Positions 3,001 to 41,440 of a stretch of DNA of 64,000 nucleotides are shown one piece after another; position 1 is the stretch's first letter; each line of letters opens with the position of its first letter. The notes under the pieces were generated by a model. That model had not been told where the DNA came from. It did not search any database and saw nothing but the letters and a program-made list of their open reading frames with translations. A program made the position numbers and the translations under genes. This stretch comes from Erysipelotrichaceae bacterium (lineage in GTDB: Bacteria > Bacillota_I > Bacilli_A > Erysipelotrichales > Erysipelotrichaceae): contig JAFULN010000026.1 of assembly GCA_017473335.1 (NCBI GenBank), positions 62,001 through 126,000 of the forward strand, written 5' to 3'.

Positions 3001-3923
3001 TGTTCCAGGAAAAGACTGGAGCCATTGGATTGCCTGAATTTGGTACGAAATTTGTGCGAGGTATCCTTGAGCTGACACAGCCAAAAACATTCTCGGATCT
3101 TGTAATTATCTCAGGTCTTTCTCATGGTACTGACGTATGGCTGAATAATGCCAAAGACTTAGTTGAAAAAGGCATTCCGCTGCAGAAAGTTATTGGATGT
3201 CGAGATGATATTATGACTTATCTGATTCATCGAGGACTTAAACCAAAAGATGCATTCTTTATCATGGAATCTGTCCGAAAAGGAAAAGGGCTCAAGCCAG
3301 AATGGGAAGAAATCATGAAGCCTGTTGTGGATGACTGGTATATTGATTCATGTAAGAAAATCAAGTACATGTTCCCAAAAGCACATGCCGTAGCTTACGT
3401 AATCATGGCCATTCGTATTGCCTGGTTTAAGGTTTATCATCCTTACTGGTATTATGCAGTATATTTCTCACTTCGATGTGATGCTTATGAAATTGATACG
3501 ATGGTCAAAGGATATGATGCAGTCGCAGCCAGAATGGATGAAATCCACAGAAAGATGGCAGATCCAGAGCTGAAGCGTGAAGTCACTCCAAAAGACAGTG
3601 CACTCATCACAACTTTTGAAAGTGTACTTGAAATGTATGCTAGAGGCTATAAATTCTCTAACATTGATATGGAGCTCTCTGAAGCAACAGAATTTAAAGT
3701 CATGCCAGGCGATAAAACAACAATTATTCCACCATTTACAACTGTGGATGGTTTAGGAGAAAACGTTGCCAAGTCTATCGTTGAAGCAAGAAAACAATGT
3801 CCATTCTTGTCAAAGGAAGATATCCTGACAAGAACACAGCTTTCTGCAACACTGTTAAAGAAACTTGAAAAGCTTGGCTGTCTGTCACATCTGCAGGAAG
3901 AAAACCAGATGTCATTATTTTAA
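1..3923 (+). CDS. polC: DNA polymerase III alpha subunit, Gram-positive type PolC (5' partial)
   Basis: This is the replicative polymerase with built-in proofreading. The frame is open to the left edge (codons from base 3), so roughly the first 100 residues lie outside the window. Counting from the Met at 18, I see an OB-fold region (about 40-140), a PHP domain starting ELHLHSNMSEMDG (about 160), a DEDDh exonuclease inserted in it (YDLETTGL about 253, HNATFDF, HRADYDAK about 395), a zinc-binding CSKC/CPHC pair near 767-795 and the catalytic PDIDLNFSG motif near 820. Domain order is that of PolC, not DnaE. A hairpin terminator follows, and rimP, its usual neighbour, is displaced by about 2 kb. 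Confidence 0.97.
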   Translation, partial: SYGIDMEFQFVTRQIELVEKTKALPQMETALKVEVKENTEFKRPKKLKYEDYEKVVIAQLKDEADQIQFTGTVFDINNITTRKGTMIQTLMVFDDTDALSVKRFEGRYTSKEDIESIKKGDTCIFYGRMGYDNFAKEVTFTAEAVVKTEGKKKKQDTADEKRVELHLHSNMSEMDGVCEVKDLITQAFEYGHRAVAVTDHMVVQAFPQAQSACGACRKKDPERDFKVLYGVEMNMVDDHLTILRNPVDTKLDEAVYCVYDLETTGLSNNYDHTIEFGGVKVRGGEIIDTMQTFIKPPRPINSFIAEKTNITNAVVANAPAIEDVIDQILEFIGDCVLVAHNATFDFGFINSELERLGRKPLTNPVIDTLDLARAIHKDRRTYRLGNIARHYRVAYDEDVAHRADYDAKVLSDVFMLMVQDCKKRGAVTVSDLDKLQSEDAYIKVMKRHITVLAKNKPGLKRLFQLITTSHTKTLALFGKANSKSNGEEFMAEPRILRTELMKDRENLLFGTACYNGEIFEIAANRSQKELEEALSFYDYVEIQPLENYRPQIEGHVVFDVERLKDILRNIIDTAKKLGKIVVATGDVHYNTPDQKILRDIYISTQGIGGVRHPLHIYDAERRRKTINPDQHFRTTDEMLECFSWLPPQEAYELVVENTNKIADMCEFIKPVHDKLYTPVIEGADQKLTDICYETAHQIYGENLPEIVDARLKRELNSIIGNGFGVIYYISHLLVKKSNQDGYLVGSRGSVGSSFVATMSGITEVNPLAPHYVCSKCHHSEFITDGSVASGFNLQNKPCPHCGTMMIPNGQDIPFETFLGFEGDKVPDIDLNFSGEYQPNAHAYTKEVFGEDYVYRAGTIGTVAQKTAFGYVSGYCEERGIENMRQAQRVHLSMGCEGVKRTTGQHPGGIIVIPNYMDVHDFTPVNYPANNPQSEWKTTHFDFHAIHDNVLKFDILGHVDPTVMRMFQNISGIDPKTIPMNDLDTMSLFSSSDALHADPKLFQEKTGAIGLPEFGTKFVRGILELTQPKTFSDLVIISGLSHGTDVWLNNAKDLVEKGIPLQKVIGCRDDIMTYLIHRGLKPKDAFFIMESVRKGKGLKPEWEEIMKPVVDDWYIDSCKKIKYMFPKAHAVAYVIMAIRIAWFKVYHPYWYYAVYFSLRCDAYEIDTMVKGYDAVAARMDEIHRKMADPELKREVTPKDSALITTFESVLEMYARGYKFSNIDMELSEATEFKVMPGDKTTIIPPFTTVDGLGENVAKSIVEARKQCPFLSKEDILTRTQLSATLLKKLEKLGCLSHLQEENQMSLF

Positions 3924-3933
3924 TCAAACAAAA

Positions 3934-3967
3934 GGGAGAATTAGGTAATCTTAATTCTTCTTTTTTA
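3934..3967 (+). terminator. Rho-independent terminator of polC
   Basis: The arms AGAATTA (3937-3943) and TAATTCT (3952-3958) form a stem with an 8-base loop and are followed by a T-rich run. It separates polC from the accessory module that follows. Confidence 0.7.
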
Positions 3968-4110
3968 TTTGTCAAAATAACCTCAAAACAGCCGTGTCAA
4001 CAGCAAAAGTAACAAAAAACACACTTTTTTCTAAATTGTGTAAAAAATTTAAATGTCAAAAAAGCCTTATTTTATAGGACAAGCATTTTACTTTTATTTT
4101 GTCAAGTAGG

Positions 4111-4143
4111 TAATGTTCCAGAACAGTACCGTATTGAACATTA
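4111..4143. promoter_or_regulatory. 8-bp inverted repeat over the -35 of the module promoter (candidate operator)
   Basis: TAATGTTC (4111-4118) and GAACATTA (4136-4143) are perfect inverted repeats spaced 17 bases apart. A second GAAC (4121-4124) lies inside. The right arm covers the -35 hexamer at 4134-4139, a position suited to control by a DNA-binding protein. The HTH/TPR regulator at 4585 is the nearest candidate; that link is inference. Confidence 0.5.
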
Positions 4144-4161
4144 TATGAAAAAGTCTATACT
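4134..4161 (+). promoter_or_regulatory. Sigma-A-type promoter of the RNA/peptide/regulator module
   Basis: TTGAAC (4134-4139), a 16-base spacer and TATACT (4156-4161) predict a start near 4168. The transcript would begin with the structured leader and run into the Cys-rich peptide gene. Confidence 0.6.
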
Positions 4162-4167
4162 TATATA

Positions 4168-4330
4168 TGTAAATCAGGTACCAAATTTACACAGACACGG
4201 ACCCTGCGCGACGTTAGCGCCTTCATTAATTATATTAATCTGTCCGGTCTGATGGTCGTTATCCTTGACACCTTTCCATACACCACACAAATAGAAAGGT
4301 TCAGCCAACGTAAACGTCAAGGATAACGAA
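4168..4330 (+). ncRNA. Structured RNA leader of unknown class upstream of the Cys-rich peptide gene
   Basis: Several perfect or near-perfect helices nest here. Helix A pairs CAGAC-A-CGGAC (4192-4202, one bulged A) with GTCCGGTCTG (4242-4251). It encloses hairpin B (GCGC 4206-4209 with GCGC 4217-4220) and AT-rich hairpin C (ATTAAT 4225-4230 with ATTAAT 4234-4239). Helix D pairs CGTTATCCTTGAC (4257-4269) with GTCAAGGATAACG (4316-4328) and continues as ACCTTTC (4270-4276) with GAAAGGT (4294-4300), leaving a one-sided bulge at 4301-4315. The loop of B (ACGTT, 4211-4215) is complementary to AACGT (4307-4311) in that bulge, suggesting a kissing contact. I do not recognise a known riboswitch, and there is no T-box signature. 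The peptide gene's ribosome-binding site begins about 20 bases after helix D. It could be a leader or a free-standing RNA. Confidence 0.6.
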
Positions 4331-4363
4331 CATGAACATTGAAAAATAGAAAGGAGAGTTAGG

Positions 4364-4567
4364 ATGAAAAAGCTACTATCACTATTGCTTACACTTCTTT
4401 TGATTGTCAACACTTCAATCTCTATCTTGGCACATGAAGAAGACCCAGATTGCACTTGCAAGTGCGATGAATGCACTACTGAAGAATGCGAATGTCCATG
4501 TCATGAACCAGCCCCAAATTTTGGTGGGGATTATGGTGAAGATGAAGACTGGTACAATAAGGACTAA
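4364..4567 (+). CDS. Small secreted acidic Cys-rich peptide
   Basis: This 67-residue protein has a classical signal peptide: two Lys, a Leu-rich core and a likely cut after SISILA near residue 23. The mature part is about 44 residues and strongly acidic. Its seven cysteines have mirror-symmetric spacing, CxCxC-x2-C-x4-CxCxC, and the tail ends DWYNKD. A good ribosome-binding site (AAGGAG, 4351-4356) sits 7 bases before the ATG. I do not recognise a family. Next to an HTH/TPR regulator it could be a precursor of a signalling peptide; a metal-binding or disulfide-rich secreted peptide is the alternative. It lies inside an insert that splits polC from rimP. Confidence 0.7.
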   Translation: MKKLLSLLLTLLLIVNTSISILAHEEDPDCTCKCDECTTEECECPCHEPAPNFGGDYGEDEDWYNKD

Positions 4568-4584
4568 TTCTCCGATCTAATACT

Positions 4585-5796
4585 ATGAATAAAAACAATT
4601 TAATCGCAGGTTTCTTTAGGTACCATCGTGAAAAATTGAATTATTCTCAAAGAGGGCTTATCAATGACAGCAGTCCTGTCAAAGAAAGCTCTTTATGTGA
4701 TTTTGAGAATGGTAAAAGAATGTTAAATGAAGAACAGCTGGTATATCTGTTTCGACAGATTGGATTTGATTATTTTGATGTTCTAAACTCTTATGATTTT
4801 TCAAATGAATATAATCATATTATTACTGAAATTCTTAATGGAAATATCAATAATGCAGAAGCTTTATATTTAGAGTGTGTTAATAAAGATGTATATAATA
4901 CTTTAGGCACATTGTTATTTTCACTTATAGCATATTTGTTAGGTATTCTTACAAATTTTAATAAAATTGAATTGAACGATTGCATCTTAAAATTACGAAA
5001 TCATCTTGATGATGATCATGTTGCTATATTGAATATATGTGAAGCAAAAATGTTGATTAATAATGGAAAATTTAATGAAGCTATTATTTTGTATAATAAT
5101 TCGTTATCATTGACTTTTGATAATAATTTGCGTTCCTGGATTTTTCTGATGCTAGGTAATACTTATTCAAAAAATGGAGATTATTACAACGCACAAAAAC
5201 ATATAGAAAATGCTTTATCTATTTATTCTCAGAATTTAAATTTTAGGAAAATGATTCAAGCAAATTTGAGTATTGGAACAATTTGTATGTTAACCAATTC
5301 CATAGAGAATGCAGAAACATCTTATATGAAGGCATATAAAGCATCACTTGATTTAAATGATTCAAATAAAATAATTACTAAATGTTTTCACTGTTTATGC
5401 TGGTTATACTTTAAAACAAATCAGTATGAAAAAGTAAAAGATATGCTTAATAATAAACCACAAGATCTAATTTTTAATAAAAATACTTATTTTGTAATAG
5501 CTTGGGCAAATTATAAATTAGGTAATGTTGATAAAACTGTTAAATATTGCCGTGAAGCTAAAGAGAAATATCCTGATTATGAATATGCTTGCATTGTTTA
5601 TGAGTATATAGAAAGAGCTGTTTTGGGGAAGAAGAGTGGTCAGGATACGCTGTTAAAGAAGGCGATTACGATGGAAGATTATGAACATAATAAAGAAATC
5701 GATGAACTGTTTACTTTAGAGTTAATTGATATCTATGAACGTCGTAAAAATTATGAAAAAGCTTATAAATATACAAGAAAACTCTTGAATCGTTAA
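4585..5796 (+). CDS. HTH/TPR transcriptional regulator, RRNPP-like
   Basis: This 403-residue protein has an N-terminal XRE-type helix-turn-helix (about residues 5-65, with SQRGL and LCDFENGKR) and then helical repeats of TPR type to the end, for example LGNTYSKNGDYYNAQKHIEN. That layout is shared by Rgg, PlcR, NprR and other receptors that bind short secreted peptides inside the cell. The gene is visibly more AT-rich than its flanks, with many AAT/ATT/TTT codons, suggesting transfer. No strong ribosome-binding site precedes the ATG, so translation may depend on the peptide gene 17 bases upstream. Ligand and targets are unknown; autoregulation through the 4111-4143 dyad is a guess. Confidence 0.75.
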   Translation: MNKNNLIAGFFRYHREKLNYSQRGLINDSSPVKESSLCDFENGKRMLNEEQLVYLFRQIGFDYFDVLNSYDFSNEYNHIITEILNGNINNAEALYLECVNKDVYNTLGTLLFSLIAYLLGILTNFNKIELNDCILKLRNHLDDDHVAILNICEAKMLINNGKFNEAIILYNNSLSLTFDNNLRSWIFLMLGNTYSKNGDYYNAQKHIENALSIYSQNLNFRKMIQANLSIGTICMLTNSIENAETSYMKAYKASLDLNDSNKIITKCFHCLCWLYFKTNQYEKVKDMLNNKPQDLIFNKNTYFVIAWANYKLGNVDKTVKYCREAKEKYPDYEYACIVYEYIERAVLGKKSGQDTLLKKAITMEDYEHNKEIDELFTLELIDIYERRKNYEKAYKYTRKLLNR

Positions 5797-5813
5797 TGAA
5801 TTTCGTGTATATT
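5785..5813 (+). promoter_or_regulatory. Promoter of the rimP-nusA-infB operon
   Basis: TTGAAT (5785-5790), a 17-base spacer and TATATT (5808-5813) fit the sigma-A consensus. The -35 lies within the last codons of the preceding regulator gene. Transcription would start near 5820, just ahead of a strong hairpin. Confidence 0.65.
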
Positions 5814-5830
5814 AAAGGCGCATACAAAAC

Positions 5831-5862
5831 AAGGAGCGGAGAACCGCTCCTTCAATTTTGTT
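5831..5862 (+). terminator. GC-rich hairpin in the rimP leader (terminator of the regulator gene or attenuator)
   Basis: AAGGAGCGG (5831-5839) and CCGCTCCTT (5844-5852) pair perfectly around an AGAA loop and are followed by CAATTTTGTTT. It lies after the predicted start of the rimP operon, so it can end read-through from the regulator and may also attenuate rimP-nusA expression. Confidence 0.6.
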
Positions 5863-5876
5863 TCAAGGAGAGGAAT

Positions 5877-6344
5877 ATGGATCAAATTGAGAAGATTGTA
5901 GAATGCATCAGCCCTGTCCTTGAGGAGTCTAATGTTGCTTTGTATGAAGTAAAATGGACGAATCAGGGTAAAAACAAAGTACTCCAGATTGCGATTATGC
6001 ATGAAGATGGCACAATGGATCTGGAAACCTGTGCAACAGTATCAGAGAAGATTTCTGAAGTACTGGATGCAAAGGATATGATCAGCTTTGAATACTTTCT
6101 TGAAATCTGTTCACCTGGGGCAGAAAGAAAGCTGAGAAGTCATGATGAAATTGTTTCTTCTACAGGAAAGCACGTTTATGTTCGTTTTAAGAAGGCAGTA
6201 AAATCGATGAATGATGTTACTGGTGATTTGGAAAAAGTGGATGGAAATGAACTGACGATTGCTTATCGTGACAAAGCTGCTGTACGACGTGTTACTTTCG
6301 ATGAAAACAATATCGATTTGATTCGTCTTGCAGTCAAACTGTAA
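5877..6344 (+). CDS. rimP: Ribosome maturation factor RimP
   Basis: RimP helps assemble the 30S subunit. I start it at 5877 because AAGGAG lies just upstream; the frame is open further left but without a suitable start signal. The 155-residue product matches the family: an N-terminal alpha/beta domain with ALYEVKWTNQG, the conserved YFLEICSPGAERKL segment near residue 78, and a C-terminal SH3-like barrel. It is the first gene of the rimP-nusA-ylxR-ylxQ-infB-rbfA operon, the standard Bacillota order. Confidence 0.93.
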   Translation: MDQIEKIVECISPVLEESNVALYEVKWTNQGKNKVLQIAIMHEDGTMDLETCATVSEKISEVLDAKDMISFEYFLEICSPGAERKLRSHDEIVSSTGKHVYVRFKKAVKSMNDVTGDLEKVDGNELTIAYRDKAAVRRVTFDENNIDLIRLAVKL

Positions 6345-6364
6345 TGGAATAAGGAGAAAAGAAA

Positions 6365-7969
6365 ATGGATTTTAAAGCGATTTACAGAGCGATGAATCAG
6401 CTGGAGGACAATCGTAAGATTTCAAAGGAAATCGTGATTGAAGCTCTGAAAGAAGCCATGGCTAAAGCGTATCGCAAGCACATCGATATTCCTGATGTAC
6501 TGGTACGTGTTGAAATTAACGAAAAGACTGGTGAGATGAAGCTTTATCAGCAGTATACAGTTGTTGAAGAAGTGGAAGATGACGAACTTGAAATTTCATT
6601 GGCAGAAGTGAAGCATTTAGGTTTGAACCTGGAGCTTGGCGAACTTCATGAAATTCAGAAGCCTATTGATGATCTTGGTCGTGCTGCTGCACTATTGGCT
6701 AAGAACGTTATGAAGCAGAAGATTCGTGAAGCTGAAAAGCAGTCAGTATATGATGAATATATTGATTTGCTGGATGAAATGGTGATTGGTCTTGTTGAAA
6801 GCGTTGAAGAAAAATTTGTTGTTGTAAACTTAGGTAAGACAATGGCATTGATGCCACGTGCTGCTCAGATTCCAGGTGAAGTTTATCGTGAGGGTCAGAA
6901 CATTCGTGTTGTGATTACTGAAGTGAATAAAGAAACGAAGGGTGCTCAGGTTTTAGTGTCTCGTGCAGATTCTAAACTTGTAAAGCGTTTGTTTGAAAGA
7001 GAAGTTCCTGAAATTTATGAAGGTGTTGTTGAAATTAAGGCAATTGCACGTGAAGCTGGTGAACGCTGCAAAATGGCTGTATATTCATCAGATCCTAATG
7101 TAGATCCTATTGGATCATGCATTGGGCCTCGTGGTGCACGTGTTTCATCAATCATTGAAGAACTTCATGGTGAAAAGATTGATATCTTTGAATGGAGTGA
7201 AAATGTACAGGAACTGATTAAGAATGCTTTGGCTCCTGCACAGGTGCTGGGTGTTATTCCATCTAGTGACAAGAAGTCACTGATGGTCATTGTTGAAGAT
7301 AATCAGCTGTCTTTGGCAATTGGTAAGAAGGGTAAGAATGCTCGTCTTGCAGTCAAGCTGACTGGCAAGAAGATTGATATTAAGACTCAGTCTGATGTAG
7401 AGGCTTCTGGTATTGACTGGAAGCTGGCAATGATTGAATTTGCAGCTGAACAGCAGCGTTTGGCTCGTGAAAAGGCAGCAGCTAAACTGATGGAAGAAAT
7501 GGCTAGAGAAGCTGAAGAAGAAGCAGTGGAAGAAGTTGTTGAAACTGTTGAAGAAACTGTTGTTGAAGCAGTTGAAACAGTGGTAGAAACTGTAGAACCT
7601 GTTGTAGAAACAGTTGTTGTAGAAAAGCCAGTAGTGAAGGAAGAAGTCAAGGAAGAAAAGGCTGAAGAACCTGCTAAGCGTGTGAAGAAGCCTGTTACTA
7701 AGAAAGATACATATGTATCTAAGTTTGAAAAGATTTTTGACAATAAGCCTGCTCAGAGTGAATCTGCGCCTAAGAAGCGTAAAAATAAACAGGATGAAGA
7801 TCGCAAGCTGCGTCCTGCTGAATTGAAGAAAGACAAGGATTATGAATTCAAGCCAATTTATTCTGAAGAAGAATTGGAAGAAATCAAGCGTAACGAAGAA
7901 ATCGATGAATATGAATTCTATGATGATATCGATTACGATGAATATGATGAATTCTACGATGAAGATTAA
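6365..7969 (+). CDS. nusA: Transcription termination/antitermination factor NusA with a long acidic tail
   Basis: NusA binds RNA polymerase and modulates pausing and termination. The first 370 residues hold the usual N-terminal domain, an S1 domain (about 130-200) and two KH domains (SCIGPRGARV near 248 and AIGKKGKNARL near 318). The remaining 160 residues are unusual. They form a Val/Glu-rich repetitive stretch of VVETVEET type (about 385-425), then a Lys-rich segment, and a final run dominated by Asp, Glu and Tyr. B. subtilis NusA stops near residue 371, so this tail is an extension. A good AAGGAG site precedes the ATG. Confidence 0.96.
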   Translation: MDFKAIYRAMNQLEDNRKISKEIVIEALKEAMAKAYRKHIDIPDVLVRVEINEKTGEMKLYQQYTVVEEVEDDELEISLAEVKHLGLNLELGELHEIQKPIDDLGRAAALLAKNVMKQKIREAEKQSVYDEYIDLLDEMVIGLVESVEEKFVVVNLGKTMALMPRAAQIPGEVYREGQNIRVVITEVNKETKGAQVLVSRADSKLVKRLFEREVPEIYEGVVEIKAIAREAGERCKMAVYSSDPNVDPIGSCIGPRGARVSSIIEELHGEKIDIFEWSENVQELIKNALAPAQVLGVIPSSDKKSLMVIVEDNQLSLAIGKKGKNARLAVKLTGKKIDIKTQSDVEASGIDWKLAMIEFAAEQQRLAREKAAAKLMEEMAREAEEEAVEEVVETVEETVVEAVETVVETVEPVVETVVVEKPVVKEEVKEEKAEEPAKRVKKPVTKKDTYVSKFEKIFDNKPAQSESAPKKRKNKQDEDRKLRPAELKKDKDYEFKPIYSEEELEEIKRNEEIDEYEFYDDIDYDEYDEFYDED

Positions 7970-7990
7970 TGTCAGAAAGGATTTGATTCT

Positions 7991-8251
7991 ATGAAGAAAA
8001 TCCCAATGAGAAAGTGTGTTGCAACGGGTGAGCAGTGTCCTAAAAAGGAACTGCTCAGAGTTGTACGTACCCCTGAGGGCAATGTTTGTGTTGATACTAC
8101 AGGCAAAGCCAATGGTAGAGGGGCATATTTGAAAAAGAGCATGGAAGCGCTGGAAGCAGCGAAGAAGAAAAACGTGCTCGAACGTGCTTTGGAATGTCAG
8201 ATTTCACAGGACGTTTATGAGGAAATCAGGAAGGTTATTGCGGGTGAGTAA
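7991..8251 (+). CDS. ylxR: YlxR/RnpM family RNA-binding protein
   Basis: This 86-residue basic protein carries the family's marks: MRKCVATGE near the N terminus, LLRVVRTPEG, and the GRGAYLKKS motif near residue 40. Members sit between nusA and infB in Bacillota, as here, and have been linked to RNase P modulation. Its last codons overlap the GTG start of the next gene by 8 bases. Confidence 0.9.
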   Translation: MKKIPMRKCVATGEQCPKKELLRVVRTPEGNVCVDTTGKANGRGAYLKKSMEALEAAKKKNVLERALECQISQDVYEEIRKVIAGE

Positions 8252-8567
8252 GGCATTGAATATGCTTGGACTTGCTTGTCGTGCAAGAAAAACTGCAATT
8301 GGTGAAACTTGCATGCATGCAGTGACATCCAGAAAGGCGTATGTTGTCTTTTTGGCTTCTGATGCTTCAGAAAGAACAAAAGATAAGGTATTGCACACCT
8401 GCAATTCGTGTGGAGTTCCTTGCGTGACGCAGTTTACATCCATCGAAATCAGTTCTGCCATAGGTCAATATGGCCGAATGATGATTTCTGTTAATGATGC
8501 TGGATTTGCGAAACAGATATTGAATTGCTTGAAAAGAGGTGGAAATTATGGCGAAAGTGCAGAATAA
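8244..8567 (+). CDS. ylxQ: L7Ae-family ribosomal protein YlxQ
   Basis: This 107-residue protein belongs to the L7Ae/L30e fold that binds RNA kink-turns. The marks are [17 protein letters not shown] at the N terminus, [16 protein letters not shown], and a C-terminal FAKQI helix. I place the start at the GTG at 8244, overlapping ylxR, because the family starts just before the LNMLG segment; an in-frame start at 8184 would lie deep inside ylxR. It overlaps the start of infB by about 20 bases, indicating translational coupling. Confidence 0.88.
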
Positions 8568-10410
8568 GAAAAAAACGGGAAGCAATAACAAACGTCCGAA
8601 TAACAACCATCGTAATAACAATGGTGGTAATCAGAAGCGTTTTAGTTCCCGCGCTGAAGCAGTCACAGCCATCACTTATGAAGAGGGCATTACTGTTTCT
8701 GAACTTGCGACAAAATGCAATAAAAACGCAAGTGATATCATCAAGCTCCTTTTCATGTTAGGAAAGATGGTCACCATCAACAGCAACCTCGATGATGAAA
8801 TGGTTGATTTAGTATGTCTTGAATGGGGCATTGAAGCGACAAAAGAAGTTCCTGTGGATGAAGATTCACTGGAAGACAATGAAATTGATGATCCAGAAAA
8901 TCTGGAAGAACGTCCTCCAATTGTTACAATCATGGGTCATGTTGACCATGGTAAAACTACACTTTTGGATACAATTCGTAAAACACGTGTTGTTGATGGA
9001 GAATTTGGTGGAATTACTCAGCATATTGGGGCTTATCAGGTTTCTGTACAGGGTAGAAAGGTAACATTCCTGGATACTCCTGGTCATGAAGCATTTACTG
9101 CAATGCGTGCACGTGGTGCTAAAGTTACTGACTTGTGTATCATTGTTGTTGCAGCTGATGATGGTGTAATGCCTCAGACAAAGGAAGCTGTAGACCATGC
9201 AAAAGCTGCTGGTGTTCCAATTATTGTTGCGGTCAACAAGATGGATAAGCCAACTGCAAATCCTGATCGCGTCATGAATGAAATGAGTGATTTAGGAATC
9301 ATGCCTGAAGAATGGGGCGGAGATACAATCTTTGTGCGCTGTTCAGCTAAACAGGGTGAAGGTATTCAGGATATTCTGGAAACAATTCTGGTTGTTTCTG
9401 AAGTACAGGAACTCAAGGCAAATCCTAATCGTATGGCAACAGCTACTGTTATTGAAGCGAAGCTGGATAAGGGACGTGGTCCTGTTACAACACTTTTAAT
9501 TCAAAATGGTACACTGCGTACTGGTGATGCTATCGTTGTTGGTGCATGCTTTGGACGTGTACGTAAGATGGTGGATGACAGAGGCCGCGAAATTAAATCT
9601 GCAGGTCCTGCAACACCAGTTGAAATTATTGGTTTGAATGATGTTCCTGTTGCTGGGGACTTGGCAAAAGCATTTGAATCAGAAAAACAGGCACGTGCTG
9701 TTGCTGAACGCCGTGCACAGGCTAAGATTGAACTGGAACGCCGTTCATCAAGTGCTATGTCATTGGATGATTTAGCTCGTCAGATTGAAAGTGGAGATGT
9801 ACAGGAAATTCCTGTTATTGTTAAAGCTGACGTTCAGGGTTCTGCTGAGGCTGTAAAAGCTTCATTGGAAAAATTGGAAGTATCTGGTGTTAAGGTAAAT
9901 GTCATTCGTTCAACTGCTGGTGCAATTTCAGAATCTGATATTATGCTAGCTAGTGCTTCAAAAGCTGTTATTTATGGCTTTAATGTTCGTCCTGACGCTA
10001 ATGTAAGAAAGAAAGCCGAAGAAGAGGGTGTAGATATTCGTCTTCACACTATCATCTATAAGGCTCTAGAAGAAATGGAACTGGCAATGAAGGGGCTTCT
10101 GGCACCAGTTTATGAAGAAGTTGTTATTGGACAGGCAACAGTTCGTCAGACATTCAAAGTATCTAAGGTGGGTACAATTGCTGGATGTATGGTCAACGAT
10201 GGTAAGATTGTGAAGGATTGTGGTGTACGTCTGATTCGTAATGGTATTGTGGTTTACACTGGTAAACTGGGATCACTCAAACGTTTCCAGAATGATGCAA
10301 AAGAAGTTACTCAGGGCTATGAATGTGGTCTGACAATTGAAAACTTCAATGATATTAAGGAAGATGATATCATCGAAGCATACCAGGATCAGGAAGTTCC
10401 TCAGGTATAA
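8548..10410 (+). CDS. infB: Translation initiation factor IF-2
   Basis: IF-2 is the GTPase that brings initiator tRNA to the 30S subunit. The ATG at 8548 follows AGAGGTGG; a GTG at 8539 lies inside that site. The protein is 620 residues, a short form, with a brief Asn/Lys/Arg-rich N terminus and one IF2_N domain (about 45-95). The G domain shows GHVDHGKTT (about 131), DTPGHEAF and NKMD. Domains II, III (with GITQHIG upstream) and the C-terminal fMet-tRNA-binding barrel follow. Confidence 0.96.
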
Positions 10411-10425
10411 GGAGGACTGCTGATT

Positions 10426-10767
10426 ATGGCAATCAAACAGGAAAGAATGAATCAGATCATTCTTAAGGAAGTTACACAGATTATTCAGTTTGAATTGAAA
10501 GATCCTAATGTTGGATTTGTCACAATTACTGATGTACATGTGACCAATGACTTCTCTTATGCAACAGTGTATGTGAGCTTTTTAGGCAAGGAAGAACGCA
10601 ATGCTGCGGGATTAAAGGCTTTAAATCGCTCTAAAGGATTTATCCGTTCTACACTGGCTAAGCGTTTAACGATTCGTAAAACTCCAGAAATTATCTTTAA
10701 ATTGGATAAATCTTTGGAACAGGGTAAACGTATTGAATCTTTGATTCAGTCTATTAAAAAAGATTAG
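10426..10767 (+). CDS. rbfA: Ribosome-binding factor A
   Basis: RbfA is a KH-like protein needed for 16S rRNA processing and cold adaptation of the 30S subunit. At 113 residues it has the normal length and shows FVTITDVHVTNDFSYATVYVSF and the TPEIIFKLDKSLEQG ending. It is the last gene of the rimP operon. The truB gene that often follows is absent here, and a hairpin terminator overlaps the stop codon. Confidence 0.94.
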   Translation: MAIKQERMNQIILKEVTQIIQFELKDPNVGFVTITDVHVTNDFSYATVYVSFLGKEERNAAGLKALNRSKGFIRSTLAKRLTIRKTPEIIFKLDKSLEQGKRIESLIQSIKKD

Positions 10768-10793
10768 TGACTCATTCAATGAGTCACTTTTTC
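10766..10793 (+). terminator. Terminator of the rimP-rbfA operon
   Basis: AGTGACTCAT (10766-10775) and ATGAGTCACT (10779-10788) form a perfect 10-bp stem with a 3-base loop, followed by TTTTT. Its first bases are the last bases of the rbfA stop codon. Confidence 0.85.
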
Positions 10794-10800
10794 TATATAA

Positions 10801-10828
10801 CAAAAGGATGTTTCAAATGAAACATCCT
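10801..10828 (-). terminator. Terminator of nadK on the minus strand
   Basis: AGGATGTTTCA and TGAAACATCCT form an 11-bp perfect stem around AA. On the minus strand it is followed by TTTTG. The nadK stop codon (10827-10829) lies in the stem. Confidence 0.8.
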
Positions 10829-11603
10829 AGAAAACATTCTTTAAGCGTTTAAGATAACTGTATTGTTTGTATCGAGCAATTCTAACTTGATATGGACTGT
10901 TTTTAATGGTACATCCTGTACAGTGATCTAGCTGCATGGATTCATGGTCATAACACAAAAAGGTGTTGTTGAAGGTTTCTGGCTTAACACGTATTACTGC
11001 ATCTTCTTTAAGAATTAGACTTGATCTTAAAGATCTGTGTTTCCAGTGATGAACGCCTGCAATTTCACTGAGCTCTAATAGTGGAAGTCCATGTTGAATT
11101 ACTGCTCCTCCTAAAGAACGATTGACAGCAGTAGAACCAATCTGTGTACACAGACAGATGCCTGTTCCTTTAAACTTTTCAAAATACTCATCATTGATCC
11201 ATAAGTCCATAGTGAGGGTATTGATGATATTTTCGATACGAATTTCATTGAATGCGTAGATAGTTTTATTTAGGTTCTCGAGTTCGACCTGAAGCACAGA
11301 ATAGTTGAAAATTCTTGGCTGTTGATGAATAAACATTTCTAAAAGTTCATCGACATCTTCAATTTGATAGTCACACATAAATCCTAATGTTCCTGTATGA
11401 ATACCGATAAATTGAATTTCATTTAACTGTTCTGCATACTGATGGATTGCCTTAAGAAAAGTACCATCTCCGCCGACAACAAAGATTGTTTCTGGTTCTT
11501 CTTCGTTATAAAGATACCCTGCCTTGGATAAACGTGTTTCTATTTTGTCTTTGATGTTCAAAGAATTTTCATCGCCTCGAATGATGACTGAATAAGTTGG
11601 CAT
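10827..11603 (-). CDS. nadK: NAD kinase
   Basis: It phosphorylates NAD to NADP and so sets the NADP(H) pool. The 258-residue protein is short but complete for the Bacillota type. It has the GGDGTFLKA motif (about 44), GIHTGTLGFM, the FNEIRI segment that supplies the NE motif (about 117), and the Gly-rich IGSTAVNRSLGGA region. It lies upstream of the TetR gene in transcription terms on the same strand, close to an NADP(H)-type dehydrogenase cluster, which may or may not be a functional link. Confidence 0.93.
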   Translation of the reverse strand: MPTYSVIIRGDENSLNIKDKIETRLSKAGYLYNEEEPETIFVVGGDGTFLKAIHQYAEQLNEIQFIGIHTGTLGFMCDYQIEDVDELLEMFIHQQPRIFNYSVLQVELENLNKTIYAFNEIRIENIINTLTMDLWINDEYFEKFKGTGICLCTQIGSTAVNRSLGGAVIQHGLPLLELSEIAGVHHWKHRSLRSSLILKEDAVIRVKPETFNNTFLCYDHESMQLDHCTGCTIKNSPYQVRIARYKQYSYLKRLKNVF

Positions 11604-11624
11604 AATTTCACATCCTTAGAAATA

Positions 11625-12191
11625 TTATACATGATTCTTTTCATACTGGCTAATAAATTCATTTGTATGATAATAGGGTTCAGATTGTTGAAAAATAAGT
11701 TCAGCAAGAGTGTCACAAGATACAGGAAAATGACTTCTAACCCACTGGTTAATGATGGTAAAGAATGCAGCAGTATGATAGATTAATGAATAATTTTGAG
11801 GACTTCTAAACTCTGTTGATCCAAAACGTTGTGTAAAGAAATTCAGCATGTTTTTAACTAATAGATTGTTTTCATCGTTATAAAATAGTACATTGATATC
11901 TTCTTTATGGTCCTGGATATACTGAAGCATGCCAGTAATGACATTCTTTTTATCGTATGTATGATTTGTATTTAGGTTGTTAGAAATCATTGCTTCAAAT
12001 AAATCATAATGAATTTCTTTTAAACAGTCATCGATATGATCATAATTAGAATAAAAGGTAGAACGATTGAGTTTTGCAGTTGTGCAGAGTTCACAAATTG
12101 TGATTTGACTATAAAGTTTCTTTTTCATTAGTTGAAAAAGGGCAGATTTCATAGCATTTTTACTTTTCTTGATTCGTATATCTTGTTTCAT
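11625..12191 (-). CDS. TetR/AcrR family transcriptional regulator
   Basis: The 188-residue protein starts with a TetR-type helix-turn-helix (about residues 10-58: ITICELCTTAKLNRSTFYSNY). The C-terminal ligand or dimer domain is of the type seen in TetR regulators with an HFPVS-like ending. It is transcribed divergently from the first dehydrogenase gene at 12311, and their promoters overlap across a 119-base gap full of dyads. Control of that dehydrogenase and of itself is the simplest reading. The inducer is unknown. An AAGAGG site supports the ATG at 12191. Confidence 0.88.
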   Translation of the reverse strand: MKQDIRIKKSKNAMKSALFQLMKKKLYSQITICELCTTAKLNRSTFYSNYDHIDDCLKEIHYDLFEAMISNNLNTNHTYDKKNVITGMLQYIQDHKEDINVLFYNDENNLLVKNMLNFFTQRFGSTEFRSPQNYSLIYHTAAFFTIINQWVRSHFPVSCDTLAELIFQQSEPYYHTNEFISQYEKNHV

Positions 12192-12212
12192 AATCGACCT
12201 CTTATAAGATAA

Positions 12213-12226
12213 CCAACAAATGTTGG
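12213..12226. promoter_or_regulatory. Perfect palindrome CCAACAAATGTTGG, candidate TetR operator
   Basis: The 14-bp sequence has perfect two-fold symmetry (CCAACA-AA-TGTTGG) and lies 22 bases upstream of the TetR gene start, a typical place for an autoregulatory operator. Confidence 0.5.
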
Positions 12227-12236
12227 AATTTGTGGA

Positions 12237-12273
12237 TTGTATTTAAATTATCATGAAGTATACTTAAATACAA
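12237..12273. promoter_or_regulatory. Overlapping divergent promoters within a 10-bp inverted repeat
   Basis: On the plus strand TTGTAT (12237-12242), 16 bases and TATACT (12259-12264) would drive the dehydrogenase at 12311. On the minus strand TTGTAT (12268-12273), 17 bases and TAATTT (12245-12250) would drive the TetR gene. The two -35 elements are the outer parts of the perfect repeat TTGTATTTAA (12237-12246) and TTAAATACAA (12264-12273), so one bound protein could block both. Confidence 0.6.
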
Positions 12274-12276
12274 GAG

Positions 12277-12294
12277 TTGTGAAAAAAGTCACAA
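12277..12294. promoter_or_regulatory. Rex-like operator TTGTGAA-AAAA-GTCACAA
   Basis: The site differs at one position from the known Rex consensus TTGTGAA-N4-TTCACAA, the operator of the NADH/NAD+ sensor Rex. It also fits the Crp/Fnr half-sites TGTGA-N6-TCACA. It lies just after the predicted start of the dehydrogenase transcript, where binding would repress. Confidence 0.55.
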
Positions 12295-12310
12295 AAAGAA
12301 AGAGGTAAAT

Positions 12311-13069
12311 ATGAGATTAGAAGGTAAAAGTATTGTTGTTACAGGTGCTTCTGCAGGTATGGGTAAAGCAATCGTAGAAACATTTGTAAAACACGGGGCT
12401 AATGTTGTTGCAGTTGCAAGAAGAAAAGAAAGACTGGAAGCACTGGTTGAATCACTTAAAGATGCACCAGGGAAAGTGGTTGCATTTGCAGGAGATATTT
12501 CAAAACGTGAAGACAATGAAGCTATGATTGATCTAGCTGTTGCTGAATTTGGAAAGCTTGATGTATTAGTTAACAATGCTGGTGTTATGGATTCTATGGA
12601 ACCAATGGGACATGTAACAGATGAAAAATATGAATGGGTCATGAATGTGAATGTTTATGGTCCAATGTGTGCTATGAGAAAGGCTGTCAATGTTTTCCTT
12701 GAACAGGGCAATGGAGGTAATATCATTAACGTCGCATCTGTTGGTGCACAAAGAAGCTGTGCAGGTGCTGTTTATTGTGCATCTAAGGCTGCTTTGGTGG
12801 CAATGTCTAAGAATACATCGTTCATGTACAATCCTCAGAAGATTCGTGTAAATGTAATTGCACCTGGCGGAATTACAACTGAAATTGCATCTTCCATGGG
12901 GATGCCTGATATGGATGGCTATAATCGTACTAAACTGGTTATGGCTACAGCTCCAGCAATGGGTCAAGCTCAGGATATCGCAGATGCTGCACTTTTCCTT
13001 GCTAGCGATGAATCAAAATATGTCAATGGCGATGTGCTTGTTGTTGACGGTGGCTGGATTGCTGGATAA
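12311..13069 (+). CDS. Short-chain dehydrogenase/reductase (SDR 1)
   Basis: A classical SDR of 252 residues. The nucleotide-binding loop is TGASAGMG (11-18), followed by ARRKER after strand 2, where the basic residues point to NADP(H). It has NNAG near 87, the catalytic Ser in NVASVG (about 142) and the YCASK Tyr/Lys pair (about 155-159). The substrate cannot be read from the sequence; 3-oxoacyl, sugar and steroid substrates all occur in this family. It is divergent from the TetR gene, has its own terminator and is preceded by a Rex-like site. AAAGAGG precedes the ATG. Confidence 0.85.
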   Translation: MRLEGKSIVVTGASAGMGKAIVETFVKHGANVVAVARRKERLEALVESLKDAPGKVVAFAGDISKREDNEAMIDLAVAEFGKLDVLVNNAGVMDSMEPMGHVTDEKYEWVMNVNVYGPMCAMRKAVNVFLEQGNGGNIINVASVGAQRSCAGAVYCASKAALVAMSKNTSFMYNPQKIRVNVIAPGGITTEIASSMGMPDMDGYNRTKLVMATAPAMGQAQDIADAALFLASDESKYVNGDVLVVDGGWIAG

Positions 13070-13081
13070 TTTGATAAAAGA

Positions 13082-13115
13082 ACTCTTGATTTCAATGTCA
13101 AGGGTTTTTTCTTTT
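13082..13115 (+). terminator. Terminator after SDR 1
   Basis: ACTCTTGA (13082-13089) pairs with TCAAGGGT (13098-13105, one G-T pair) and is followed by a long T run. Confidence 0.75.
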
Positions 13116-13155
13116 TATGCTACTATGATAAAATAGAATCAAGGCAGGTGATAAG

Positions 13156-14604
13156 ATGAAAAAAGCTGCATTTTATCAAGGAACTTTAATGCTTGTTCCT
13201 GATGAGTTCGATTCATTTTCATCATTTGTAAAAGAAGTTCAAGAACATCCTCTTCAAGTTTTAGTGACACTTCATGAAAAAGATTGTTTGGTTCCATATT
13301 TTATTGAAGAGTACTGCGAAGTGAAAACAGTGTTGATTTCTCATCCTGAACAGTTGATTGAGATTGAAGTTGAAGTGTTAAAAAAAGAGGAATATGATCT
13401 CAGATTGACACAGAAAATGAAAGAACTTCGTTTATCTGAAAAATCTTTAGATGAAATAAGAAGTTCTATGACACTGGATGGAACTTTTTTAAGAGAATCT
13501 AATGCTTCATGTTATGATGAATCGATTAAGGAATTCTGGGATTGTTTCATGACAAAAGAAAAACTTTTGCGTGATGGAATGTCAGAAACATGTCTTCAGG
13601 ATGATGATATAAGAATGATGCTTCAGGTATACTGTGGGATTTCTTATCATCAGTGTCGTGTATATACGCGTAAGATTCGACATAAGCATATTTTAATGGT
13701 TACTTGTCTTGCGGATTCTTTGCTTCAGATTTTAGTGGATGCTGTGATTCATAAAGCACCAAAAGAATTGATGAAAACCTGGGAATTTCATTCTTTTTTA
13801 CCTAAACGTGTTTATCAGTATGTATCATCACTGGATGATTATGATGTTTCTAAAACACCTTGTACTCTAAAAATTAAAAAGACAGAATTTGATCATCTTC
13901 GTTATGATATAGAATTTGAGATTGAACCATATCATAATTTTGCCAAGGCATGTGAAGAGAACTATTTGTACATGTGCTCAATTTTAGGCGAAAACATGTT
14001 TCATGCAACTGTTCATCAGTTTTCATGGAATGCATTATCGAAACGTACAGGCATCACAGTACAGCAGTTTGATGAGAAATTGATGTCTTCGTTTAATCCA
14101 TTGCTGCTGGTACAGCTGGCAGGGCATATGCATCAGATAGGCCTTCGTTTAAAGAAGCAGGAGATTTTTTCTGAGCGTGGTTTTGATCAGCATATCATGA
14201 CACGATGTGTTGAATGTACAGATTGGTTTGTGCTTGAGAAACAATCAACAGATATCAATGAACTTCAGATGGATTTGAACATTGGCTTTTCTACACTGGT
14301 TTTTACTTTGCGCGATGATGAAGAGCGTGATATTCAACAAAAACATATTCTTTTGGATTTAATGAAACTTTTGGTAGAGAATACAAGCATGGAAATCATT
14401 GACTATTGTATTTCTGAACATAGAATTGATGTTGATTTTATGAACTTTGATTCTGCAAAGATGTTTAATGTGTTAAGAAAGAATGCTCCGCTATTTGAAC
14501 TTTATCAATGCAGATATGATGAACATACTGCAGAAGGGTGTGAACATTACCAAGTTTCTTATACTATGAGAAAGAAAAAACTAAGTTTTAATAGTTTACA
14601 TTAA
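13156..14604 (+). CDS. Protein of unknown function (482 residues)
   Basis: I do not recognise this protein. It has no signal peptide and no clear membrane segment and is probably cytoplasmic. It is rich in Cys, His and Met, with scattered pairs such as MTRCVECTDWF near residue 350, but no clean zinc-finger spacing. It looks like a largely helical protein with an acidic alpha/beta segment around residues 225-260. It lies between SDR 1 and SDR 2 with its own good ribosome-binding site (GGCAGGTG). A palindrome overlaps its stop codon. Its place suggests a link to the redox cluster, but nothing in the sequence shows what it does. Confidence 0.7.
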   Translation: MKKAAFYQGTLMLVPDEFDSFSSFVKEVQEHPLQVLVTLHEKDCLVPYFIEEYCEVKTVLISHPEQLIEIEVEVLKKEEYDLRLTQKMKELRLSEKSLDEIRSSMTLDGTFLRESNASCYDESIKEFWDCFMTKEKLLRDGMSETCLQDDDIRMMLQVYCGISYHQCRVYTRKIRHKHILMVTCLADSLLQILVDAVIHKAPKELMKTWEFHSFLPKRVYQYVSSLDDYDVSKTPCTLKIKKTEFDHLRYDIEFEIEPYHNFAKACEENYLYMCSILGENMFHATVHQFSWNALSKRTGITVQQFDEKLMSSFNPLLLVQLAGHMHQIGLRLKKQEIFSERGFDQHIMTRCVECTDWFVLEKQSTDINELQMDLNIGFSTLVFTLRDDEERDIQQKHILLDLMKLLVENTSMEIIDYCISEHRIDVDFMNFDSAKMFNVLRKNAPLFELYQCRYDEHTAEGCEHYQVSYTMRKKKLSFNSLH

Positions 14605-14613
14605 AATGTAAAC
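14594..14613. promoter_or_regulatory. 20-bp palindrome GTTTACATTAAAATGTAAAC
   Basis: The 9-bp arms are perfect around a central AA and span the stop codon of the preceding gene. No T run follows, so an operator for the SDR 2 promoter (its -35 begins 31 bases further on) is at least as likely as a terminator. Confidence 0.5.
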
Positions 14614-14632
14614 GCATACATGTGAAAAAGAT

Positions 14633-14713
14633 AAAAATAACCCTTGACTGATAAAAATTTCACAAGTATAATTTTTTTTGTGAAAACTTTAACGAAGAAA
14701 GAGGGTTATTTTT
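14633..14713. repeat. 11-bp inverted repeats flanking the SDR 2 promoter
   Basis: AAAAATAACCC (14633-14643) and GGGTTATTTTT (14703-14713) are perfect inverted repeats. They exactly bracket the promoter of SDR 2: the left copy abuts the -35 and the right copy ends one base before the ATG. A nested second pair, TTTCACAA (14658-14665) and TTGTGAAA (14678-14685), is nearly concentric. The left outer arm is not transcribed from this promoter, so the symmetry acts, if at all, at DNA level. Confidence 0.6.
14644..14672 (+). promoter_or_regulatory. Promoter of SDR 2
   Basis: TTGACT (14644-14649), a 17-base spacer and TATAAT (14667-14672) make one of the best promoters in the window. TTCACAA and TTGTGAA half-sites flank the -10, and TTGTGAA-N4-TTAACGA (14678-14695) is a weaker Rex-like match. 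Confidence 0.75.
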
Positions 14714-14714
14714 A

Positions 14715-15476
14715 ATGGGACGTTTAGACAATAAAGTTGCAATTATCACAGGAAGCAATTCAGGAGTAGGTGCTGCTGCAGCGAAACTGTTCGCAAAAGA
14801 AGGAGCTAAGGTTGTAATCAGCGCACGCCGTCTTCCTCAGCTTGAGGAAGTAGCTGCTGAAATTCGTGCTGCAGGCGGAGAAGTACTGGTTGTACAGACT
14901 GATGTATCTAAAGTAGAAGACTGTGAGAATTTAGTCGCAAAGACTGTGGAAACATTTGGTAAAGTTGATGTTTTGGTCAACAATGCTGGAGTGCTTGAGG
15001 CTGGTCTGAAACCAATTGATAAATACAGTGATGAAGATGTTGAATGGGTATACAACATTAACACAAAGGGTACTATGTACTGCACTCGCGCTGTATTAAA
15101 GAACATGATGGAAAACAATAGTGGTTCAATTATTAACCTGGACTCTGTTGCTGGTGCATTTGGATGCGGTGGTGCTGCATATGTTTCTTCTAAGGCAGCA
15201 ATCATTGGCTTGACAAAACATACTGCTATGCGTTTTACAGGTACTGGAATCAGATGCAACTCAGTCAATCCATCTACAATTTTGACTCCTATGTCAAAGA
15301 CAGATCCTGCAACTTTGGATCAGAATATGTTCGGTCAGATGATGAAGCATATGAATCTGCGTGTTCAGCCTTGTCTTCCTGAAGATGTTGCAAATATTCT
15401 GCTGTTCTTGGCTTCTGATGAGTCTAGAGCTTTGACAGGTCAGATTATCGTATCTGATTTCGGCGCAACTCTGTAA
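14715..15476 (+). CDS. Short-chain dehydrogenase/reductase (SDR 2)
   Basis: A classical SDR of 253 residues, with TGSNSGVG (12-19), ARRLPQ after strand 2 (NADP(H) likely), NNAG near 90, Ser in NLDSVAG (about 144) and YVSSK (about 155-159). It is about as far from SDR 1 as from SDR 3, so the three are not recent duplicates by eye. It heads the run SDR 2-SDR 3-nfnA-nfnB and has a strong, symmetric promoter. Substrate unknown. Confidence 0.85.
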   Translation: MGRLDNKVAIITGSNSGVGAAAAKLFAKEGAKVVISARRLPQLEEVAAEIRAAGGEVLVVQTDVSKVEDCENLVAKTVETFGKVDVLVNNAGVLEAGLKPIDKYSDEDVEWVYNINTKGTMYCTRAVLKNMMENNSGSIINLDSVAGAFGCGGAAYVSSKAAIIGLTKHTAMRFTGTGIRCNSVNPSTILTPMSKTDPATLDQNMFGQMMKHMNLRVQPCLPEDVANILLFLASDESRALTGQIIVSDFGATL

Positions 15477-33749: not shown

Positions 33750-33971
33750 TAAAAAGAAAAACGCCCCTGTGAAGGGACGCTGAATACGTGGTACCACCCG
33801 ACTTACTCATAATTATGAGTCACTTTACGGGATAACGGTTTTCTCCGGATGACGACTTGTGCCGCATCAGCTCCAAAGACCCACTTCTTTGCAGGAAATG
33901 CTGCAGTTTTCACCAGCCACTGCATCTCTTAAGTCATTTTCTTACAAATACTTCTTCTTTTTCTAAGCTCT
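33750..33971 (-). promoter_or_regulatory. T-box riboswitch of trpS
   Basis: On the minus strand the T-box core CGGGTGGTACCACG (33787-33800) is intact, and a terminator GCGTCCCTTCACAGGGGCG plus T run (33752-33780) follows. Stem I occupies the 5' part and contains TGG triplets that can serve as the Trp specifier; I cannot assign the exact one. Uncharged tRNA-Trp would favour the antiterminator and permit trpS expression. Confidence 0.93.
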
Positions 33972-33977
33972 GCATTT

Positions 33978-41215: not shown

Positions 41216-41221
41216 CAATAA

Positions 41222-41440
41222 GTAAATCGTAATGGTTGATGAGTAGTTGAACTAATGTTTTTAGAGACAGGGTGGCTGGTGAAAATCCTGAGCAGAATTC
41301 AATGAAGCTGCTTCCATAGAGTGACTAATCCTCACCGTGACTTCGCGTTAAGAAGAATTAAGGTGCATATCGAAAGATATGAAGATGGATGGTACCGCGT
41401 AAATTACGTTCCTTCAGTTTTTGAAGGGACTTTTTTTGTT
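41222..41440 (+). promoter_or_regulatory. T-box riboswitch of alaS
   Basis: The core TGGATGGTACCGCG (41386-41399) is intact, and a terminator GTTCCTTCA/TGAAGGGAC with T run (41409-41437) follows. A GCT triplet at 41307-41309 within stem I is the probable Ala specifier. Uncharged tRNA-Ala would allow read-through into alaS. Confidence 0.93.

What the first reader, a model, noticed from the sequence alone, without database searches (positions are those of the whole stretch)
4111..5796. RNA/peptide/TPR-regulator module inserted between polC and rimP
polC and rimP are next to each other in many Bacillota. Here about 1.9 kb separates them and holds a dyad-covered promoter, a complex structured RNA, a secreted Cys-rich peptide and an AT-rich HTH/TPR regulator of RRNPP type. 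A secreted peptide beside such a receptor is the classic layout of peptide signalling. An RNA of this complexity ahead of the peptide gene is not part of any RRNPP system I know.
Basis: partly seen in the sequence, partly recalled or inferred. Interest (0 to 1): 0.8.

Follow-up and report, generated by a model that had tools for sequence, protein, structure and literature searches.

The report
Peptide-signalling cassette with RNA leader
Between two housekeeping genes of a gut Erysipelotrichaceae bacterium lies a small cassette that looks like a bacterial peptide-communication system (a secreted cysteine-rich peptide and a receptor that would switch genes), with a conserved folded RNA of unknown type ahead of the peptide gene that we found in only three species.

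Summary
Between polC (stop 3923) and rimP (ATG 5877) lies a 1.95-kb cassette: a 75-bp palindromic promoter element, a structured RNA leader, a 67-aa Cys-rich peptide with a signal-like N-terminus, and an AT-rich HTH/TPR protein of 403 aa. The same cassette sits at the same place in two other species of the genus; a fourth (G003) has a bare 97-bp gap. The RNA folds alike in all three, with 10 two-sided compensatory pairs among only three sequences. It matches no Rfam family and no other genome searched.

The regulator's predicted fold is closest to Rap and NprR, so it belongs with the RRNPP receptors. Elsewhere in the family, 17 of 47 profile hits have a signal-like Cys-containing peptide directly upstream, against 19 of 238 control ORFs (p = 3e-6). 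HTH and C-terminus are conserved; the central TPRs are only 29-43% identical, like a receptor diversifying with its signal. The promoter element recurs only ahead of one xre-type gene, in two of the three species.

Best reading: an RRNPP-type quorum-sensing pair with a Cys-rich propeptide, plus an orphan RNA leader. Pheromone identity, DNA binding and RNA function are inferred, not shown.

The parts
4065..4139 (+). 75-bp regulatory element ending at the -35 hexamer; roughly palindromic core GTCAA-n-GGTAnTGTTC-nn-GAACAnTACC-n-TTGA; probable operator of the cassette
   Evidence: Aligned without gaps in three species' cassettes and two further copies ahead of an xre gene; only three full copies in the own genome
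4134..4161 (+). sigma-70-like promoter TTGAAC-16-TATACT
   Evidence: Consensus scan; hexamers at the same place in the relatives by eye. Transcription start near 4167 is inferred
4167..4333 (+). structured RNA leader: P0 (GUAAAU/AUUUAC), P1, P2 (GCGC hairpin with GUUA loop), long P3 with inner P3b (ACCUUUC/GAAAGGU) and invariant UUCAGCC strand
   Evidence: Fold z -4.1; relatives -2.3 and -3.1; covariation; model R1 finds three species only
4364..4567 (+). 67-aa secreted Cys-rich propeptide (signal-like N-terminus, Cys core CTCKCDECTTEECECPCH, variable tail)
   Evidence: Homologues 63-68% identical in two species; no Pfam or PHROG match
4585..5796 (+). 403-aa HTH/TPR regulator of RRNPP type, AT-rich (26.5% GC)
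   Evidence: TPR matches, NprR/Rap3T by profile, Rap/NprR by fold
5831..5852 (.). terminator-like hairpin between regulator and rimP, readable on both strands; boundary of the cassette
   Evidence: kept in the relatives

Best explanation
A complete RRNPP-type peptide quorum-sensing cassette. Shown by sequence and model: promoter element, folded leader, peptide gene and receptor gene follow each other on one strand without a terminator between leader and peptide, and the receptor has an HTH plus a Rap/NprR-like TPR superhelix. Inferred: the Cys-rich propeptide is exported by Sec, its C-terminal tail is released and re-imported, and it binds the TPR groove. The receptor then changes its grip on the 75-bp palindrome at its own promoter and at the xre gene elsewhere, giving autoregulation and a small regulon. 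The RNA leader would gate peptide translation or transcript stability, so that the signal is made only under a condition the RNA senses; its ligand or partner is unknown.
For: Receptor fold: best 14 PDB matches are all Rap proteins, NprR follows (model pLDDT 83); profile matches Rap3T and NprR along the TPR region. Adjacent small signal-like peptide, repeated across the family: 17 of 47 regulator hits against 19 of 238 control ORFs, Fisher p 3e-6. Conserved HTH (70%) and C-terminus (74%) around a variable middle (29-43%) while host genes flanking it are about 80-95% identical in DNA. Same cassette and place in three species, absent together in a fourth. Operator-like element at the cassette promoter and one other gene only. 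Leader under structural selection.
Against: Pfam gives no HTH for this protein on its own and designed TPR proteins outscore RRNPP proteins by sequence. A 7-Cys propeptide is unlike the short Cys-free pheromones known to me. About half of the family's regulator hits showed no such peptide under the rule used. The AlphaFold alignment had only three sequences. No binding, secretion or expression data. The variable middle could also reflect relaxed constraint.
Confidence: 0.68

Rival explanations
1. A metal- or redox-handling module: the Cys/His-rich secreted peptide binds Zn or Cu (or senses oxidation by disulfides), the TPR protein reads its state, and the RNA is a metal- or stress-responsive leader. 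No quorum sensing is involved.
For: Seven Cys and one His in a metallothionein-like core, all Cys kept in three species; relatives carry CTHVHDEECGY-type Cys/His motifs.
Against: The receptor is of the Rap/NprR fold, whose known ligands are peptides; no metal transporter or reductase in the cassette; several relatives have only two or three Cys; the tail and the TPR groove region are the variable parts.
Confidence: 0.14
2. The peptide is an effector (bacteriocin-like or cell-surface active) and the regulator merely controls it; peptide and receptor do not interact.
For: Secreted, Cys-rich and variable; a similar pair in the own genome stands ahead of an RHS/AHH nuclease toxin with an Imm11 immunity gene.
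Against: No immunity or export gene in the cassette; the small gene is regularly placed just ahead of RRNPP-fold receptors, the published propeptide layout (PMC9765709).
Confidence: 0.12
3. The RNA is a translational switch with an internal Shine-Dalgarno mimic: in P3b ACCUUUC pairs GAAAGG, and it could instead pair the peptide's own GAAAGG ribosome site as a pseudoknot. (A sub-hypothesis about the leader; compatible with the best explanation.)
For: GAAAGG stands both in the P3b 3' strand and in the ribosome site in all three species; duplex energies -8.1 to -9.3 for the site against -9.9 to -10.3 kcal/mol for the mimic. Only 2 of 27 genes with a clear site use GAAAGG.
Against: Control: about a dozen of 42 other genes pair the same strand at least as well as the peptide's site, so the match is not exceptional. 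No alternative structure was shown.
Confidence: 0.2
4. The 75-bp element is bound by the xre-type protein or by a third regulator, and the cassette is a downstream target rather than the source of control.
For: The element stands ahead of the xre gene in two species; XRE repressors are often autoregulated (general knowledge).
Against: G001 has cassette and element but no xre orthologue was found (the genome is 93% complete); the element is absent from G003, which lacks both.
Confidence: 0.3

Closest known systems
RRNPP/RRNPPA quorum-sensing systems, NprR/Rap side (NprR-NprX, Rap-Phr)
   Same: HTH plus TPR superhelix of the Rap/NprR kind; small KK-hydrophobic propeptide gene immediately next to the receptor gene, as described in PMC9765709
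   Different: Propeptide carries a Cys-rich core; a structured RNA leader precedes it; lineage Erysipelotrichaceae, where no RRNPP paper was found in the library; peptide binding untested
PlcR-PapR
   Same: Receptor with HTH and adjacent propeptide; palindromic operator at its own promoter (known for PlcR, from general knowledge)
   Different: Longer TPR array (403 aa); different palindrome; no PlcR match among the best structure hits shown
Orphan riboswitch candidates (structured leaders without a known ligand)
   Same: Multi-helix 5' leader with invariant loops and covarying stems directly ahead of an ORF
   Different: No Rfam match, only three species, precedes a small secreted peptide instead of a metabolic or transporter gene

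Membership tests
RRNPP/RRNPPA quorum-sensing receptor | Receptor of about 250-500 aa with a peptide-binding TPR domain (RRNPP_detector criterion, PMC10075063) | tested here: met
   403 aa, several TPR families above cut-off
RRNPP/RRNPPA quorum-sensing receptor | TPR superhelix of the RRNPP kind | tested here: met
   AlphaFold model pLDDT 83; best 14 PDB matches are Rap, NprR lower; profile covers NprR and Rap3T
RRNPP/RRNPPA quorum-sensing receptor | N-terminal HTH (transcription-regulator branch) | tested here: met
   No Pfam HTH for the single protein, but the family profile matches HTH proteins at its N-terminus (9sf2, 8ezt, 2mez) and the model has helices there (pLDDT 61-80)
RRNPP/RRNPPA quorum-sensing receptor | Small propeptide with export signal immediately adjacent | tested here: met
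   17 bp upstream, MKK plus hydrophobic stretch; export predicted by rule only, SignalP not available
RRNPP/RRNPPA quorum-sensing receptor | Mature short peptide re-imported and bound in the TPR groove, changing activity | not testable with these tools
   Needs binding and reporter assays
RRNPP/RRNPPA quorum-sensing receptor | Conserved groove residues contacting the peptide backbone | not tested
   No residue-level superposition was made
Riboswitch / cis-regulatory leader RNA | Conserved secondary structure with covariation ahead of an ORF | tested here: met
   97.3% of cells pair, 10 pairs changed on both sides in three sequences
Riboswitch / cis-regulatory leader RNA | Expression platform (terminator or sequestered ribosome site) | tested here: inconclusive
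   No terminator in the leader's 3' part; possible pairing with the ribosome site is not exceptional
Riboswitch / cis-regulatory leader RNA | Specific ligand | not testable with these tools
   Needs probing
Known Rfam RNA family | Match above the gathering score | tested here: not met
   Only two T-boxes elsewhere in the window; permissive scan of 3900-4600 gave only low-scoring hits far below gathering

The most novel reading that the evidence does not exclude
A quorum-sensing cassette in which pheromone production is gated by a dedicated riboswitch-like RNA, so that a cell signals only when it also senses a metabolite or stress, with the Cys-rich core of the propeptide acting as a second sensor or processing gate. 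No such RNA-gated RRNPP system turned up in the papers searched.
Probability: 0.3. Interest if true: 0.85.

Novelty: new variant of a known kind. Interest (0 to 1): 0.57.

Why it matters
Peptide quorum sensing in Erysipelotrichaceae is barely documented in the literature searched: no paper in the library joins RRNPP with this family, and RRNPP_detector was run on complete genomes only (PMC10075063). The family-wide pattern of an HTH/TPR receptor preceded by a small signal-like Cys/His-containing peptide gives many testable pairs, several per genome in G026. One pair in the window's own genome sits ahead of an RHS nuclease toxin, which would tie signalling to bacterial competition in the gut. 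The covarying RNA ahead of the peptide is a concrete new structured-RNA candidate, and it raises the question of whether a signal peptide can be put under riboswitch-type control.

Tried and rejected
Single-sequence scans with the regulator in genome contigs and viral contigs found nothing, nor did tblastn in phages and plasmids, so no sign of phage or plasmid carriage was found. The 8-row profile A6 was too diverse for a viral scan. DNA patterns of the RNA core in viral contigs: 0 matches for the P3b pattern; 52 for the P2 pattern, which I take for chance given the size of the collection. Known RNA families rejected. The SD-mimic switch was tested against other ribosome sites and is not exceptional. 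Whether structured leaders precede the peptides elsewhere in the family: most do not; a few strong z-scores (L065, L089, L094) were not examined and may be upstream terminators. Operator search by short pattern gave mostly chance hits (the control orientation also hits); only the 75-bp profile was specific. Weak profile hits overlapping coding genes in G028 were discarded. The plain three-species alignment of the RNA misaligned G001 and was replaced by a structure-based one. That alignment is fitted to the structure, which favours it; the independent folds of each species are the check.

Full report
WHAT IS THERE. polC ends at 3923 and rimP begins at 5877. In between lie, on the + strand, a 75-bp promoter element (4065-4139), a promoter (4134-4161), a structured leader (4167-4333), a 67-aa peptide gene (4364-4567) and a 403-aa regulator gene (4585-5796); a hairpin at 5831-5852 that looks like a terminator on both strands closes the cassette. 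The regulator gene has 26.5% GC against 36.1% for the window and 38% for polC; the RNA and peptide gene are near 40%.

CO-OCCURRENCE. The genus has four genomes in the collection. G001 and G002 carry the same cassette in the same gap (regulator 49-52% identical, peptide 63-68%). G003 has polC and rimP 97 bp apart and none of the parts at that place. Names from a second collection show that the G001 and G002 contigs are from Erysipelotrichaceae metagenome bins of water-buffalo and goat caecum. In G002 two contigs end inside the cassette with different peptide tails but a nearly identical regulator start. This means either two tandem cassettes or two strain alleles; it cannot be settled here. 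In 29 other family loci with rimP, polC was found within 1.5 kb upstream in 10, with gaps of 92-117 bp in seven and 427-555 bp in three.

THE RNA. The leader folds with z -4.1 in the window, -2.3 in G001 and -3.1 in G002, and the separate MFE folds agree on P1, P2, P3 and P3b. A covariance model from two species finds the third at E 4e-21 to 1e-19. On the resulting alignment 97.3% of cells pair, with 10 pairs changed on both sides, against at most 2 for slid versions and 4.8 +/- 1.4 for shuffles. The changes lie in P1, P3 and the base of P3; P2 and P3b never vary and P0 nearly never, and the strand UUCAGCC is invariant. The RNA is absent from 270 other family genomes and from the rest of a 295-genome order sample, from Rfam and, by its core pattern, from viral contigs. 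No terminator separates it from the peptide gene, so a cis leader is the simplest reading. A switch in which ACCUUUC leaves its partner GAAAGG for the ribosome site GAAAGG is possible in all three species, but other ribosome sites in the window pair as well, so I do not rely on it.

THE REGULATOR. Pfam sees only TPRs. A profile of eight relatives matches Rap3T (E 3e-14) and NprR (E 1.4e-10) along nearly the whole TPR region, and HTH proteins at the N-terminus; designed TPR proteins score higher on repeats alone. The AlphaFold model (pLDDT 83, three-sequence alignment) has Rap structures as its best 14 PDB matches, RapI with TM 0.63/0.70, and NprR further down. Between the three species, identity is 70% at residues 1-70, 29-43% at 71-240 and 74% at 351-403, while flanking host genes are mostly 80-95% identical in DNA. 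This is the pattern expected if the peptide groove diverges with the signal while the DNA-binding part is kept; relaxed constraint is not excluded.

THE PEPTIDE AND ITS FAMILY. The peptide has a lysine doublet, a hydrophobic stretch, a plausible signal peptidase site (ILA/HEE, by eye), a core with seven Cys and a variable tail. Related regulators are spread across the family (60 of 268 genomes at E <= 1e-10) and often have a similar small gene directly upstream, for example CTHVHTEECGENGINCKHECYHVTLLNDEHAPN, CTHIHDEDCGPNGENCTHICTENNPYRFEEPDL and CTHVHTEECGEDGVNCTHTCEECVEPYNKKWPDE (signal parts left off here). With one rule applied to all ORFs of the fetched regions, 17 of 47 regulator hits and 19 of 238 other large ORFs have such a neighbour (odds 6.5, p 3e-6). 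The regulators are related to each other, so the p-value overstates independence. Most relatives lack a structured leader. The propeptide position, size and KK motif match the published description of RRNPPA systems (PMC9765709).

THE OPERATOR. The dyad TGTTC-nn-GAACA is the centre of a 75-bp element aligned without gaps in the three cassettes. In the own genome two more full copies stand in tandem 0.1-0.5 kb ahead of a 290-aa xre-type gene (L113). The orthologous xre gene of G002 has one copy at the same place (E 9.2e-11). In G001 no xre orthologue was detected, and G003 has neither xre nor cassette. The element therefore tracks the cassette and defines a candidate two-promoter regulon. Because G001 keeps the element without the xre gene, the cassette's own regulator is the likelier binder, but G001 is an incomplete bin (93%).

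HOW IT MOST LIKELY WORKS. Shown: gene order, conservation, RNA fold, receptor fold class. Inferred: the receptor binds the palindrome and controls its own operon and xre; the exported peptide, cut to its tail, returns and modulates the receptor; the RNA adds a second input on peptide synthesis. What the RNA senses and what the Cys core does are open.

KNOWN OR NEW. As a receptor-propeptide pair it works like, and by the features tested is a member of, the RRNPP systems; peptide binding and import could not be tested. I found no paper joining RRNPP with Erysipelotrichaceae. The one hit for RRNPP with cysteine-rich is a Legionella structure paper, and the three RRNPP papers that I word-searched do not mention cysteine. 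The library holds open-access papers only, so absence there is weak evidence. The RNA leader is the new part; hence 'new variant of a known kind'.

Noticed in passing
L060 (own genome, C83:14000-30000), 3920-15426: A 396-aa regulator-like gene, then a 54-aa signal-like Cys-rich peptide (CDCYENHVESEECPCECHG), then a 3125-aa RHS-repeat protein with an AHH nuclease end and an Imm11 immunity gene: a polymorphic toxin with a similar peptide ahead of it.
   Followed up: partly
L113 8271-8345 and 8559-8633 (-), own genome C3; L150 (G002 C45): Tandem copies of the cassette's 75-bp promoter element ahead of a 290-aa xre-type gene; one copy ahead of its orthologue in G002.
   Followed up: yes
L061-L064 (G026): One genome with at least four receptor-peptide pairs whose peptides share a CxHxH..CG..C core and differ in their tails; a good set for testing cross-talk.
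   Followed up: partly
L024 1-20 (G002 C204) and L025 1-200 (G002 C95): Two different peptide tails with a nearly identical regulator start at two contig ends: tandem cassettes or strain alleles.
   Followed up: partly
window 33770-33974 (-) and 41218-41416 (+): Two T-box leaders.
   Followed up: no
L089, L094 and L065, 200 bases upstream of the peptide genes: Strongly folded upstream stretches (z -4.1, -3.7, -2.9) ahead of more distant relatives of the peptide; could be terminators of the preceding genes or unrelated leaders.
   Followed up: no
L154 (G002 C163:1709-1767): A weak further match to the promoter element (E 0.008) between a large open reading frame and a LysR-type gene.
   Followed up: no
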